Source of the DNA: Armillaria gallica
Lineage: Eukaryota; Basidiomycota; Agaricomycetes; Agaricales; Physalacriaceae
Assembly (NCBI GenBank): GCA_037576215.1
Contig: JBANDB010000003.1
Span: 2,046,001 to 2,110,000 of the forward strand
Direction: 5' to 3'
Length of the DNA stretch: 64,000 nucleotides
Every line of letters starts with the position of its first letter. Within the stretch, counting starts at the first letter, position 1. Both the position numbers and the translations under genes were made by a program. Below the pieces are notes generated by a model. It was not told the origin of the DNA. It worked only from the letters and a program-made list of their open reading frames with translations, and searched no databases. This document shows positions 39,773 to 49,704 of this stretch, in pieces.

Positions 39773-41917
39773 TCAGTGTACGTTTTCCAGCCCAAAGTTG
39801 CCAACTTCGAGGTTCAGAACCAAACCATCGACACTCTCCGCCGCAACGTGAATAGGTCCACCGTACATGGTGTGGACAGCCTTTCGCGCGTTGATCTCCT
39901 TCAGCACTAATTTGGCCTCCTTGTCGTCCTTGGCTAAATTCTCAATCTCACCGTCAGTCATGATTGGTACCGACGGCGAGCATAACTCCGGTCCAAGTCG
40001 TGCTCCTACAGCTTCATGCATTTGCGGGTCCGTAGGGGCAAAGATATCTTTGCAAAAGTCCATGGTCTTTTGTAACTCGTCTTCCGACACAGTTTTGCCA
40101 ACGTCGGCTGTGCCCTGGATCACTGTGATAGAGGTCAGTGATATCAGGAGAAAGATTGATCCAGTACTACTGGCCTGGTCTAAGAATATCAAAAGCTCTA
40201 TCAAAGTTGTCCTCGTCGACCTCGGCCAAAATGTGTAAATCTTGATTACGAATCTGTTTATAGACGCCCATGACAACAAGTAAAAAGCTGATATAAATCA
40301 TTAGAATACGGGACAGTACGTTTGAAGAGATGCTGCACCGAGTATACGCAATAGCGACTTTCTTGTCGTGAAACTGAGCCGCCTGCGATTCCGAACATGT
40401 TTTCCGGATCGAGGCCGATATCGACGCGGCAGCAGTTAGCGCACCCAAGAGCGCCAAATGAACTCCGCTTGAGAAGAAGGGATCTATGAAGGCTGGAAAG
40501 CGCGTCGTTATGTCATGTATAAACAACAGCCAGCTTGGGAACGCACCAGACGCGTCGCCGATGAGTCTGAAGTGATCACCGGAGTATCTGTCGGCAGCAT
40601 AGCTAAAATCACTGGCGCTGCGGATGCATGTAGGGCTATTCTCTCCTTGGAGGGTTGCCTTGCAGAGAAATTTCCCGCTGACCATAGGCGCTAGTTTGAG
40701 CTGTGCGAGGTAGTCGGCCTTTGAGGAATAATGGATGCCGTTCCTTGCGGATAGAGCCCTTCTAGCAGTGCTCGAAGCTTGATCAGTCACAATACCTACG
40801 GAAACTGTGCTATCGTGTAGGGGTATGAACCATGCCCAGCCACTACCATCTGGAGCAAATAGTGGGTCAATGCCGAAATAATATATAAATAGAGAAAGAA
40901 AGCAAAACCTGTTAATGCTTCAAAAAATGGAGCGTTGTCGCGTTCGCTTCCTGGCATGTATCGCTTTGCCCCAGTCCAATAACCCCATGATGCAACGTTT
41001 CTAAGGGTGTTGTTAAACTTACGATTTTTCAGGTACTGAAAAGAAAGTATGAGTTGTCAGAATACAACAGGAATCTGTTACCTAGAGCTATACGTGCCTT
41101 GGTCGACATGATCCCCACTCGACCGGATGCGTCGACAAGGTAGTCAAAGGAGATTGAACGAAGCTCTCCATCAGGACGACTAAATTCAGCCCTGATGGGC
41201 CTGCCTTCGCTGACGTTGTTGTCCGCAAATATGAGGTTGGTGACTTTATGGTTCTCGAATACTTGAGCCCCAAGCTCTTCGGCATGACGCAGTAAGATCT
41301 CATCGAATTCTGAACGTTTCTAAACATGGTTCAACTTGAATTGCAATACACAATGATAGAAAATTTACCACATTCCAAGCTGCAGCATTATCAGGACTGT
41401 TGCCGCCGCTAAGGGTGGAGAAGTCGGTGTCTTGAATTTTAAGAAGTTTAGTAAGGAGCGCCGTGAAAAGCAATAATGCCGTACATCCTTCGCGTTTGTG
41501 CTGCTGGAACTTTACTGCGGCACCAGGCTGGTCAGTGACGGTCAGCCCAATGATAAATGGTATAAGATTGATATAGGAATTCTACCTTGGGACAAAACCC
41601 ATGTGAAGCGATCTTGTTGTCTGCACCCGAGAATTTCAGAAATGGTCGGACTGAAGGAAGCATGCTTTCTCCGATATGGTACCTTAGTTAGAGTTGTGAG
41701 GAAGACATAGGAATAAGAGTTGCATGGTACTTACCGAGGGAATGTTGTGGCCTCCAAGACGACGACAGAGAATCCTTCTCTGGCCAAGATGGAGGCACAG
41801 TAGCTCCCCGCAGGTCCGCCGCCGACGACCAGAATTTGAACATGAGAAGGCTGTAAGGAGATTTTAAACCAGCGATCCAGGACCTACACGCAAATTACAA
41901 ACCAACAGTGAGCTCAT
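39773..41917 (-). CDS. Flavin-dependent halogenase
   Basis: Multi-exon gene on the minus strand. The first exon is tiny (MSSLL), then [10 protein letters not shown] (FAD-binding GxGxxG), [25 protein letters not shown] with the Lys expected for the chlorinating lysine, [18 protein letters not shown] and [19 protein letters not shown]. The WxWxIP motif and the FIDPFFSSG block separate FADH2-dependent halogenases from ordinary flavin monooxygenases, so chloride (or bromide) transfer to an electron-rich ring is the likely reaction. A reduced flavin must come from a partner reductase. Two introns need GC donors (41036-41098 and 40123-40174). It diverges from the ammonia-lyase gene over a 501-bp promoter. 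Confidence 0.9.
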
Positions 41918-42418
41918 GATGTGGCTTTGATACTGGATGTGCCTCCAAAATGGTGAAAGGAGCTGACTCTATATGTATAGCCCCATTCCTGCCGCTTATA
42001 GGCGCCCAGCTGGGAGAAAAAAGCGTAGGAAGCTTCGGGGCCGTCTGCTGTAAACTTTTGCTTGACTATCCTGGAGGTAATCTCACGATATGGTCGCAAA
42101 CTCAATGAAGAAATTCAAGCTCAAAGGCTGTTCGAACTGCGGTGTTTTGGATATTTGCCGGTTGACGGCCCGCTATCCACTCGGCTCCACGGCAACAGCC
42201 GAACATGCTCTCCACAGTCACTTCCTACCCCGGTTCATCAGCGCTCAGCCATCATCGGATTTTCAATATGCCGCGGAGAACGGACCCTGAAAACCGTATT
42301 CGAGCTATGATATGATGAAGTCGAAGCATCGTTACCAACCATCTTCTCGCATCTTTCAAACCCTAAGCTTCAACCGACATCGACGGTATACACTGACACT
42401 GCCTACTTCCGTTCAAGC
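41918..42418. promoter_or_regulatory. Divergent promoter, halogenase / ammonia-lyase
   Basis: 501 bp between the two start codons on opposite strands. It is the only space for both promoters, so joint control is likely. A TATATGTATAG stretch lies near 41971. No known factor site could be assigned with confidence. Confidence 0.6.
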
Positions 42419-47225: not shown

Positions 47226-47430
47226 CATGCTCGAGCACGGCACTAATTCCAAAGAAGCGGTCTCAAAATCGACTGAAGGCTCGGAGAACCTATTCATGGT
47301 CAATTCAGGTGTGAAATTCTCGAAGATATAGCATGGCATGGCATAGATTGAGACGCAACCTGAAATTTACGTAGAGGAATTTGTGTACACTATGTTCCGA
47401 AATACTTGGGGTATGCTCCTCTCTGAACGT

Positions 47431-49704
47431 CTAGTAGCTGCCTTCTTCCACTGCGATCCTGAGCTTTTCCAAACGCTCTTTCGACCTTGGCTCAAAATGA
47501 CATTCAAATTCCTCTGGTTTCCTACAATGACAGTTAAGACTCCGTTTCGATGCAACTCGCGAGGGATCACTCACAATAGAGCTAGGTTCCAAATAAACTT
47601 GGGGTCCTGCTTCTGTTCTAGACCATTCACATCGACGGGATATCTTATATTATACACAGACAACAAAGTGGCGATGTTCATCCACAAGTTGCTCTCCGCG
47701 AAGTGCCGACCGGGGCATATCCTGTCAAATGGTAAGTACCGGCTTGACTGGCTTGGTCCCTCGCAACATTACCTTCTTCCGTAGCCGAATGCAAAATTGC
47801 GCGGATCAGGTATGTCTTTGAACAGCTTATATCCATCGGTAAATCTCTCAGGTCTGAACTCGTTGGGCTCAGGAAAGTCATTTTCGTCGTGCAAGCATAG
47901 CCTATAAATGTCATGACCAGATTGGCTTGAAACCGTTGAAGTATAATAGTGTGACTTACCATGTGTTTGGAATGATAGTGGAGCCCTTAGGGATGAACAT
48001 CCCATTATAGACGTCATCTCGCATATTCGTATGTGGGAAGGCTAGCCGGGATTCGGGGAATTAGTGCTGAGAGGACGTCATGTCCACATCTGACACGAGA
48101 GACTTACACATGGGTACCACCGGCCTCCATCTGGTCCTCTGTTAGTATTCATGAAATATTTCGGTGTCAGTCGCTTACCTTGATATTTCCTTCGCAATAG
48201 CCTCTATATAGGGAATGGCTTCGCGGTCACTCAGAGTGGGCAGTCGCTCATTTCCAACTACCCCATCAATGTATGCTTGTGCTTTCTTCTGGACTTCAGG
48301 GTATCGCATCATTGCCAGTAGGAAGACTTGAAGTGTAATCACAGTCTACGGTACGACGTTAGCTCGTCAAAGACACGGTAATAAATCACTTACCGTCATA
48401 GCACCGCCTGAACAAACGTGGTTATAATGGTAAACACAAAGAATTGTCTTGAACGGACCTGAAAAAGTGATGGCAACAGATGCCTGAATCGATCGTTCAT
48501 TGAAAACTGTTCCGTCCTGATCCTGGTAAGTCTCAATTAAGTGCCTCATCATGGATGGGCCAACTGCGCTCATTTCCTATTAATTGCGTTGAGATCTGTT
48601 ATCGAACCCAGCTTTCGTGCTACAGGAATTTACTTACCATAGTGTCTTTGGTGAGCTGATACGGGATTTCAAGCATGTCGGTAACGCAATGGTTCAAACG
48701 TTTCATTCCATCAGCTAGTTTCTTTCCGAACACGAATAGAGGAAGCTTCGCCACTTTTATACGTCAATGGCTTTCTGTTATAGATCTAGAGTAGACATAC
48801 GTGCGGGTATGAGGTCGACAGGGTGAGTACCGACCGCCGCTTCCACAGACATAGACTCGTCGAAGTCATAAGCCAACTTGAGTAGCATCTCCTTTTTTTC
48901 GGGCTCTGCGAGATAAATTGAGTTACGTGGTTAGATACTGGAAGAGGGATACTGGAAGAAGAAAATAGTTACCGTGGTTTCCAAGGGTAAACCCTAAAAT
49001 GCTCGATCCAGCCATTCTGTTTTATCAAATAAGGCCGCGTTCAACACAACGACGAAGAGGCACACCTATTAAGAGCAGCATCCATAGTTTTTGGATCTTT
49101 CCCGACACTGAGGGCAAATACCCGAGCCTCATTTGCCAAAAGCTTCTGAAATTGGTGGAAAAAACTCGTGTTGATGCATTGGTTGAGCATCCGATGCTGA
49201 CGATGCATCTCAGGACCGTAGGTCAGGATAGGTAGCATCCAATCTAGTTGTGCTCTATTGCGAAAGTTGAATCAAGAACCACAGATACTAAGGAAAGCAC
49301 AGCTTACAATTCGGTCAGGAATGGGAAACTAGGTCTGTCGGAGTATATCACACTGCGCTCGTCAAGTAAATCATGAATTGCAGTACGGGAATTCAGAACA
49401 ATGATGGATCGTCCGAGAACCTTGAGACCGATGACATCTCCTTTAAGGCAAAATGATTCTGGTAAAGGCTTAAAAGGAACTTGGGGTGCAACGAACCGTA
49501 TACATGTCGCCAGGATGCGAAGTGCATGTGAAGCATAGACGGATCCACTGACAAGTCCTTGATATTCCCAAGGATCGACCACAACCAACCGCGTGGACCG
49601 GGTGGAAAGTGGGTATTGATAGGTTCATTGGACTTATTCAGGCGATATAAGAAGAAAGCAAAGGCGCAACCACATATTGTAGCGAGAGCAGGAACAACAG
49701 TCAT
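47431..49704 (-). CDS. Cytochrome P450-2
   Basis: Multi-exon, full-length P450. N-terminal anchor and FPPGPRGW hinge are followed by GDVIGLKVLGRSIIVLNS, YSDRP, K-helix EISR (ExxR), and heme loop FAFGYGRRICPG with the Cys ligand. The C-terminus KPEEFECHFEPRSKERLEKL needs a last intron (a frame ending in LALL is intron read-through). The I-helix reads FSGGAMTT: the usual Asp/Glu of the (A/G)GxD/ETT oxygen-activation motif is Met. All other landmarks are intact, so it may be catalytically atypical rather than dead. It belongs to the same subfamily as the decayed P450-3 next door. Likely hydroxylates an aromatic or terpene intermediate in the ER. Confidence 0.88.

What the first reader, a model, noticed from the sequence alone, without database searches (positions are those of the whole stretch)
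39773..49704. Ammonia-lyase, halogenase, O-methyltransferase and P450 side by side: candidate chlorinated-aromatic pathway
Seen: a halogenase with WxWxIP and FIDPFFSSG, a PAL with the MIO triad, a COMT-type methyltransferase and a full-length P450 in 10 kb, two of them sharing a promoter. Known: PAL makes cinnamate from phenylalanine, basidiomycetes such as Bjerkandera produce chlorinated anisyl alcohols and aldehydes from aromatic amino acids, and strobilurin clusters also use a PAL. Inference: these four steps (deamination, ring hydroxylation, chlorination, O-methylation) suit chlorinated anisyl metabolites or a chlorinated methoxy-aryl building block. No PKS or CoA ligase is visible, so a strobilurin-type polyketide is less likely from this window alone.
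Basis: partly seen in the sequence, partly recalled or inferred. Interest (0 to 1): 0.88.

Follow-up and report, generated by a model that had tools for sequence, protein, structure and literature searches.

The report
Honey-mushroom chlorinated-aromatic gene cluster
In a honey-mushroom genome, three neighbouring genes look like an assembly line that trims an aromatic amino acid, adds chlorine and adds a methyl group; the trimming enzyme has an unusual pocket that, among the relatives compared, was otherwise seen only in another mushroom where it also sits beside a chlorinating enzyme.

Summary
Rebuilt exon by exon: halogenase (39773-41917, -), 533 aa, 98% and 96% identical to annotated Armillaria proteins of the same length; PAL (42419-44999, +), 704 aa; OMT 45360-47225 (+); P450 47504-49704 (-). 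Halogenase and PAL share a 501-bp intergenic region. The source is Armillaria gallica or very close. Halogenase, PAL and OMT lie on one contig in A. mellea. Halogenase and PAL share a contig in Desarmillaria ectypa and Guyanagaster, and have consecutive locus numbers twice in Paramarasmius palmivorus. The PAL is not ordinary: with the P. palmivorus PALs it forms a deep clade with pocket changes (PcPAL F137->Q, I460->V, Q488->E). Neither Q137 nor E488 occurs in the 112 other PALs compared. This points to a para-substituted, tyrosine-like substrate rather than plain phenylalanine. Chlorinated methoxy-aryl chemistry is well motivated. The product is unproven, and an ArmH/melleolide role for the halogenase is not excluded. 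I class it as a new variant of a known kind.

The parts
37655..39621 (+). MFS transporter, convergent with the halogenase; first exon uncertain (an alternative model starts at 37237)
   Evidence: models; Pfam MFS_1 86.4 bits for the 37237-start model
39773..41917 (-). flavin-dependent halogenase, 533 aa, 11 exons, two GC-AG introns
   Evidence: closest solved structure RadH 8gu0, E 5.6e-125
41918..42418 (.). 501-bp region between the diverging halogenase and PAL start codons
42419..44999 (+). MIO ammonia-lyase of the PAL family, 704 aa, 10 exons, one GC-AG intron; altered substrate pocket
   Evidence: NCBIfam PAL model TIGR01226 744.7 bits for the 95-97% identical ortholog P0121
45360..47225 (+). 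SAM-dependent O-methyltransferase (Methyltransf_2), 465 aa, 10 exons, HDW catalytic-histidine region present
47504..49704 (-). cytochrome P450 (P450a), full length; linked to the terpene cassette, membership of the aryl unit uncertain
50162..50410 (.). MITE-like element with 28-bp perfect terminal inverted repeats, many copies in the genome
50831..52329 (-). degenerate second P450 (P450b); no C-terminal third with the heme motif seen
   Evidence: models; three-frame reading; the C2 copy has this part and the alignment skips it in the window. The motif scan is uninformative: it also missed P450a, whose motif is split by an intron
52932..54207 (-). sesquiterpene-synthase-type gene (FDDHLE, NDVYSFNME; an RY-type SARYRG lies in an exon stretch that my first model left out)
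54846..56144 (+). polyprenyl diphosphate synthase
56790..59045 (+). decayed partial copies in the original order: OMT end 56790-57117 (72%), P450a end 58385-58701 (75%), sequence just downstream of the prenyl synthase 58794-59045 (68%); read as the relic of an old tandem duplication (inference)

Best explanation
The halogenase, PAL and OMT form one conserved biosynthetic unit that makes a chlorinated, O-methylated C6-C3 or C6-C1 aromatic from an aromatic amino acid. Shown: the genes, their divergent layout, their co-location in related species, and the altered PAL pocket. Inferred: the lyase deaminates a para-substituted phenylalanine (most likely L-tyrosine or a ring-modified tyrosine) to a hydroxycinnamate; the RadH/ArmH-type halogenase chlorinates the free phenol ortho to the OH; the OMT caps the phenol as a methyl ether; the convergent MFS protein may export the product. 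A tyrosine-type substrate supplies the phenol directly, so no P450 is needed to make one. P450a more likely serves the neighbouring terpene cassette, though it may act on either.
For: Co-location, read from equal contig lengths: A. mellea halogenase, PAL and OMT on one 4,849,598-base contig; Desarmillaria ectypa and Guyanagaster halogenase plus PAL on one contig each; D. tabescens PAL plus OMT; A. luteobubalina halogenase plus OMT. Paramarasmius palmivorus has PAL/halogenase at VNI00_006503/006504 and again at 006522/006523. Among non-Armillaria species with both genes listed, halogenase and this OMT share a contig in 4 of 13 (expected 0.63 and P 0.002 if genomes are 40 Mb; 0.32 and 0.0001 at 80 Mb). 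A second, divergent halogenase-OMT tandem pair lies on C7 of the same genome. Lyase: the 9 unit-type PALs (window, 5 named Armillaria-group rows, one unnamed 91% row, 2 P. palmivorus) form one 100/100 clade; Q at PcPAL 137 in 9/9 against 0/112, E at 488 in 9/9 against 0/112, V at 460 in 9/9 against 2/112. PMC9226071 passages: 137/460 tune para-substituted substrates, 460 is highly conserved, and polar residues at 137 such as His give tyrosine activity. PMC4102242 passages: Q488 is one of nine strictly conserved residues. 3 of 3 bacterial HutH proteins have Glu at the 488 position.
Against: No expression or metabolite data. In the halogenase tree the sister of the Armillaria group is Hohenbuehelia grisea, not P. 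palmivorus, and H. grisea is not among the 120 PAL hits listed, so the pair may not have been inherited as one block. No OMT row is named for P. palmivorus, Guyanagaster or D. ectypa (unnamed rows and cluster members not shown could hide one). Outside the Armillaria group the halogenase-PAL same-contig count is only 2 of 20 species (P 0.19 at 40 Mb, 0.06 at 80 Mb). In A. ostoyae the listed halogenase-like model (P0048, odd in its C-terminal part) and the OMT are on different contigs. The PAL tree carries a long-branch warning. The substrate of a Q137/E488 lyase is unknown; reduced or lost activity is possible.
Confidence: 0.48

Rival explanations
1. One reading: PAL turns phenylalanine into cinnamate, P450a hydroxylates the ring, the halogenase chlorinates and the OMT methylates.
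For: All four genes are contiguous; decayed copies at 56790-57117 (OMT end) and 58385-58701 (P450a end) in the same order suggest that OMT and P450a were neighbours before an old tandem duplication.
Against: Altered PAL pocket; P450a travels with P450b, terpene synthase and prenyl synthase in a copy of about 92% identity on C2 without halogenase, PAL or OMT; P450a lacks the usual acidic residue of the I-helix acid-alcohol pair (reads SGGAMTT; motif rule recalled), so an ordinary hydroxylase role is not certain.
Confidence: 0.2
2. The halogenase is one of the redundant ArmH enzymes that chlorinate melleolides, and its PAL and OMT neighbours are incidental.
For: Five A. mellea halogenases outside the melleolide cluster chlorinate melleolide F in vitro (PMC9144378 passages; PMC7778616 passages). 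A protein named after armH4 (P0009) is closest to the window halogenase among the six of this genome (64% against 54% or less; the C7 sequence was partial), so the window gene may be the ArmH4 ortholog.
Against: The pairing with this PAL type recurs in P. palmivorus, and the abstract of PMC7778616 (start shown) says melleolides and armillyl orsellinates are made exclusively by Armillaria. Both P. palmivorus PAL-linked halogenases are closer to the window enzyme (60% and 58%) than to any paralog (about 50% or less).
Confidence: 0.14
3. One larger cluster makes a sesquiterpene joined to a chlorinated methoxy-cinnamate or -benzoate, i.e. a melleolide-like ester with a shikimate-type acyl part.
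For: The terpene cassette follows the OMT directly, and the OMT|P450a neighbourhood looks old.
Against: No acyltransferase or CoA ligase was recognised among the modelled genes scanned (10 proteins); the PF00501 genome search gave no hit near the window but scored only 14 of 156 candidates. The cassette stands alone on C2.
Confidence: 0.12

Closest known systems
ArmH1-ArmH5 halogenases of Armillaria mellea (act on free phenolic substrate)
   Same: Same genus and protein family; basidiomycete flavin-dependent halogenase; possibly the ArmH4 ortholog (inference).
   Different: Reported as melleolide chlorinases (passages); a link to a PAL/OMT unit was not found in the searches (20 of 139 papers listed).
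RadH (PDB 8gu0), halogenase of radicicol biosynthesis
   Same: Best solved match, 421 bits; for the 98% ortholog P0001 the FIDPFFSSG segment and the Lys in the GF-x-x-K-x-GAA segment align.
   Different: RadH acts on a resorcylic lactone from a PKS pathway in an ascomycete (recalled).
Rhodotorula toruloides PAL (1y2m, 1t6j)
   Same: Closest solved lyase, E 2.1e-144; MIO triad and most catalytic residues kept.
   Different: H137-Q138 replaced by Q-I, I472 by V, and the Gln at PcPAL position 488 by Glu (alignment).
Strobilurin cluster (str11 PAL, str8, str10, stpks1) of Strobilurus
   Same: A clustered basidiomycete PAL that feeds an aromatic pathway, with methyltransferases.
   Different: Has a PKS and CoA ligase and, in the authors' words, no obvious halogenase (PMC6158276 passages).
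Chlorinated anisyl metabolites of wood-rot basidiomycetes (Bjerkandera, Hypholoma)
   Same: Would need the same operations: amino-acid deamination, chlorination, O-methylation; a phenylalanine origin of chlorinated benzoic-type compounds is stated in PMC8181146 (passages).
   Different: No such compound is tied to this unit; the Hypholoma paper proposes a different candidate cluster. Bjerkandera chemistry is recalled.
GedA O-methyltransferase (7wh9) of geodin biosynthesis
   Same: Second-best solved relative of the OMT ortholog P0242; geodin is also chlorinated (recalled).
   Different: Anthraquinone substrate, PKS pathway (recalled).

Membership tests
Flavin-dependent halogenase, free-phenol type (RadH/ArmH) | GxGxxG FAD motif, WxWxIP motif, DPFFSSG segment, Lys in the RadH-aligned position (which residues define the family is recalled) | tested here: met
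   [22 protein letters not shown] in the splice; Lys aligned to RadH in the 98% ortholog P0001, same segment in the window protein. RadH itself reads GWCWTIP at the second motif
Flavin-dependent halogenase, free-phenol type (RadH/ArmH) | chlorinates a phenol in vitro | not testable with these tools
   no assay possible
Phenylalanine ammonia-lyase | MIO-forming Ala-Ser-Gly and catalytic Tyr110, Asn260, Gln348, Tyr351, Arg354, Phe400 (PcPAL) | tested here: met
   present in the window protein and in all 9 clade members
Phenylalanine ammonia-lyase | strictly conserved Gln488 (PcPAL) | tested here: not met
   Glu in 9 of 9 clade members against Gln in 112 of 112 others; Q488 listed as strictly conserved in PMC4102242 (passages). 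So I call it a PAL-family lyase, not a proven phenylalanine ammonia-lyase
Phenylalanine ammonia-lyase | uses phenylalanine as preferred substrate | not testable with these tools
   NCBIfam PAL model is passed by ortholog P0121 (744.7 bits, cut-off 519.15), but that is family, not substrate
Tyrosine ammonia-lyase | His at PcPAL 137 position | tested here: not met
   Gln, not His; another polar residue, so tyrosine use remains possible
Histidine ammonia-lyase | Ser-His at 137-138 and Glu at 488 (as in the three HutH compared) | tested here: not met
   Glu488 shared with 3 of 3 HutH, but 137-138 is Q-I, not S-H
Class I SAM O-methyltransferase, Methyltransf_2 | PF00891 above cut-off and catalytic His in HDW | tested here: met
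   49.9 bits, cut-off 22.3; VLHDWTDQDC in the splice
Strobilurin-type cluster | PKS and CoA ligase beside the PAL | tested here: not met
   nearest ketoacyl-synthase hit on contig C3 is at 2,907,180, about 0.8 Mb away (all 26 first-look candidates scored). The CoA-ligase half is inconclusive: that search scored only 14 of 156 candidates
Bjerkandera-type chlorinated anisyl pathway | produces chlorinated anisyl alcohol or aldehyde | not testable with these tools
   no metabolite data

The most novel reading that the evidence does not exclude
A previously unnoticed lineage of MIO ammonia-lyases (Gln137, Val460, Glu488) has evolved in mushrooms together with a halogenase, and its natural substrate is a para-substituted or already ring-chlorinated tyrosine. 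The result would be a halogenated phenylpropanoid pathway in honey mushrooms, separate from melleolides.
Probability: 0.27. Interest if true: 0.72.

Novelty: new variant of a known kind. Interest (0 to 1): 0.55.

Why it matters
In the passages I saw, the authors of PMC8181146 call the biosynthesis of Hypholoma's metabolites, anisaldehydes included, unstudied, and PMC6158276 reports no obvious halogenase in the strobilurin cluster although the fungi make chlorinated strobilurin B. A conserved halogenase/ammonia-lyase/OMT unit gives a short list of enzymes with which the origin of mushroom chloro-aromatics can be tested directly. The lyase would add a natural example of pocket changes (valine at 460, a polar residue at 137) at the positions that engineers alter on purpose for substituted phenylalanines.

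Tried and rejected
Rejected: strobilurin-type cluster (no PKS nearby). Rejected: P450 as an established member of the aryl unit, because of the C2 copy; I then found decayed copies suggesting that OMT and P450a are old neighbours, so I leave it open rather than excluded. Considered and not settled: whether the window halogenase is ArmH4. The ArmH sequences were not held and Wick et al. 2016 was not readable; that paper is recalled or seen only as cited. A first PAL model of 695 aa was replaced after comparison with orthologs. Paper searches for Armillaria with PAL and halogenase (0 papers), for P. palmivorus metabolites (listing only, nothing relevant) and for pocket residues by three-letter names (0 papers) led nowhere. 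A first halogenase tree script failed on a dropped row and was shown without P0048. The PAL tree carries a long-branch warning that I did not test further. A motif scan for the P450b heme region was uninformative because it also missed P450a. The PF00891 genome search missed the window's own OMT, so its silence near the other halogenases proves little.

Rows dropped before counting: unnamed rows (6 of 120 halogenase, 20 of 120 PAL, 5 of 61 OMT) and the 20 distant OMT rows P0282-P0301. Those 20 include Mycena metata, which also has a halogenase and is not on the same contig; with it the halogenase-OMT count would be 4 of 14.
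Full report
WHERE IT COMES FROM. The window is G000:C3:2046001-2110000 of an 86.05-Mb genome in 28 contigs. The halogenase is identical over 488 aligned columns to an Armillaria gallica protein, P0004. PMC7778616 quotes about 85 Mb for A. gallica (passages). The source is therefore A. gallica or very near it.

THE OBSERVATION. I read the DNA, translated it in frames, trained a small gene finder on it and corrected the models by hand. 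The halogenase has 11 exons at 39773-41917 (-) and gives 533 aa, the length of the A. borealis and A. mellea proteins (98% and 96% identical). Two of its ten introns and one of the nine PAL introns are GC-AG. The PAL has 10 exons at 42419-44999 (+), 704 aa. The OMT has 10 exons at 45360-47225 (+). The P450 is at 47504-49704 (-). Pfam agrees for all four. Halogenase and PAL start codons face apart across 501 bp.

Next to these lie a degenerate second P450, a terpene synthase with metal-binding motifs (an RY-type motif sits in a stretch my first model skipped), a polyprenyl synthase and MFS transporters. The block 47342-56355 has a colinear copy on C2:1769704-1781887, 91.5-93.0% identical in its four largest pieces and 87-90% in three small ones, where the second P450 has its heme region. 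No halogenase, PAL or OMT match lies at that place. The block therefore behaves as a separate terpene cassette, and its edge falls between the OMT and P450a. Against a clean split, decayed copies of the OMT end, the P450a end and the sequence just downstream of the prenyl synthase at 56790-59045 repeat the same order (68-75% identity), which suggests that OMT and P450a have long been neighbours.

IS IT A UNIT? Three protein searches (the best 120, 120 and all 61 hits listed) give the longest contig of each hit, which serves as a fingerprint. A. mellea: all three genes on 4,849,598. D. ectypa: halogenase and PAL on 4,048,416. Guyanagaster necrorhizus: halogenase and PAL on 587,688. D. tabescens: PAL and OMT on 4,517,278. 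A. luteobubalina: halogenase and OMT on 1,949,712. A. ostoyae is an exception: its odd halogenase-like model and OMT lie on different contigs. In P. palmivorus, PAL/halogenase have consecutive locus numbers twice (006503/006504 and 006522/006523). Counting named species with both genes listed: halogenase-PAL 3 of 3 in the Armillaria group and 2 of 20 outside (P. palmivorus and Crucibulum laeve; not significant, P 0.19 at an assumed 40 Mb, 0.06 at 80 Mb). Halogenase-OMT: 2 of 3 inside, and 4 of 13 outside (Favolaschia, Mycena polygramma, Neolentinus, Phlebopus; expected 0.63 and P 0.002 at an assumed 40 Mb, 0.32 and 0.0001 at 80 Mb). PAL-OMT: 2 of 2 inside, 1 of 6 outside (P 0.20 and 0.10). Same contig is not the same as adjacent, and the genome sizes are assumed. 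Inside this genome, of six halogenase loci, one other, on C7, is followed within 0.5 kb by another PF00891 methyltransferase; these are only 43% and 27% identical to the window's pair. No PF00891 hit lies near the remaining four, but that search also missed the window's own OMT, so this is weak.

THE LYASE. The tree of 34 PALs puts the window PAL, five named Armillaria-group rows, one unnamed 91% row and both P. palmivorus PALs in one clade at 100/100, well away from the canonical PALs that Desarmillaria and Guyanagaster also have (the tool warns of long branches). The genome also keeps two other PAL loci with the ordinary M-Q and H-Q pairs. Over 121 PALs (window plus the 120 listed hits), the position of PcPAL F137 is Gln in 9 of 9 of the clade and 0 of 112 others; Q488 is Glu in 9 of 9 and 0 of 112; I460 is Val in 9 of 9 and 2 of 112; 138 is Ile (7) or Leu (2) against mostly Gln (94 of 112, with 16 Leu and 2 His). 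From PMC9226071 (passages): changes at L256, L134 and F137/I460 favour ortho-, meta- and para-substituted substrates respectively, I460 is highly conserved, and a polar residue such as His at 137 brings tyrosine activity. From PMC4102242 (passages): Q488 is among nine strictly conserved residues. In my alignment three bacterial histidine ammonia-lyases carry Glu there, while a Pseudonocardia aromatic lyase keeps Gln. The simplest reading is a lyase retuned for a para-substituted, polar ring. That this is tyrosine or chlorotyrosine is inference.

THE HALOGENASE. Its best solved relative is RadH, and the signature segments align. Both P. palmivorus halogenases are closer to it (60% and 58%) than to any of the five paralogs (about 50% or less), but its nearest neighbour in the tree outside the Armillaria group is Hohenbuehelia grisea, a species with no row among the 120 PAL hits listed. 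A protein named after armH4 is closest to it among the six, so it may be the ArmH4 ortholog, whose A. mellea version chlorinates melleolide F in vitro (PMC9144378 passages). That would be an activity on a free phenol, which fits either pathway.

MECHANISM. Shown: gene content, arrangement, co-location in relatives, altered pocket. Inferred: deamination of a tyrosine-like amino acid, chlorination ortho to the phenol, methylation of the phenol, possible export. No PKS was found close by: all 26 first-look KS candidates scored, nearest on this contig 0.8 Mb away. No acyl-activating enzyme was seen, but that search scored only 14 of 156 candidates.

NOVELTY. Each enzyme family is known. I found no report of this combination in the searches (20 of 139 papers listed); the library holds only open-licence papers. 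I rate it a new variant of a known kind. The lyase clade is the part that a specialist would not expect.

Noticed in passing
window 50162-50410: MITE-like element, 249 bp with 28-bp perfect terminal inverted repeats; 39 further near-full or partial copies at 80-100% identity among the 40 of 152 candidates scored, one 100% identical on C9.
   Followed up: partly
window 47342-56355 and G000:C2:1769704-1781887: Colinear, about 92% identical duplicate of a P450-P450-terpene synthase-prenyl synthase block; the window copy of the second P450 lacks its C-terminal part, the C2 copy has it.
   Followed up: yes
window 56712-59191 and G000:C3:2111763-2113748: Inverted similarity (81%) just past the window end, including an OMT-end fragment (88%), and a different Methyltransf_2 gene at C3:2114027-2115790.
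   Followed up: partly
G000:C7:5058793-5064751 (L055, L056): A second halogenase followed by an O-methyltransferase and a gene that by eye looks like an intradiol dioxygenase, all on the + strand: another candidate chloro-aromatic locus.
   Followed up: partly
G000:C2:3417475-3430185: A halogenase about 10 kb from ketoacyl-synthase hits and a PKS-like reductase gene (by eye): a separate chlorinated-polyketide candidate.
   Followed up: no
G000:C14:73255-119027 and C17:182296-217222: Matching sets of ketoacyl-synthase hits in inverted order on two contigs, suggesting a duplicated region or haplotype pieces left in the assembly.
   Followed up: no
window 47504-49704: P450a I-helix reads SGGAMTT (C2 copy SGGTVTS): the usual acidic residue of the acid-alcohol pair is missing in both (motif rule recalled).
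   Followed up: no
halogenase introns at 41036-41097 and 40123-40174, PAL intron 44262-44309: Three GC-AG introns among 19 in two adjacent genes; the annotated D. ectypa halogenase (P0006) shows a disturbed stretch at the first of these sites and lacks a stretch at the second.
   Followed up: partly
window 26.6-32.4 kb and G000:C3:2119-2125 kb: A P450 gene and a multi-span membrane-protein gene recur, mostly inverted, beyond the window (65-72% identity), so the whole neighbourhood is rich in local duplications.
   Followed up: no
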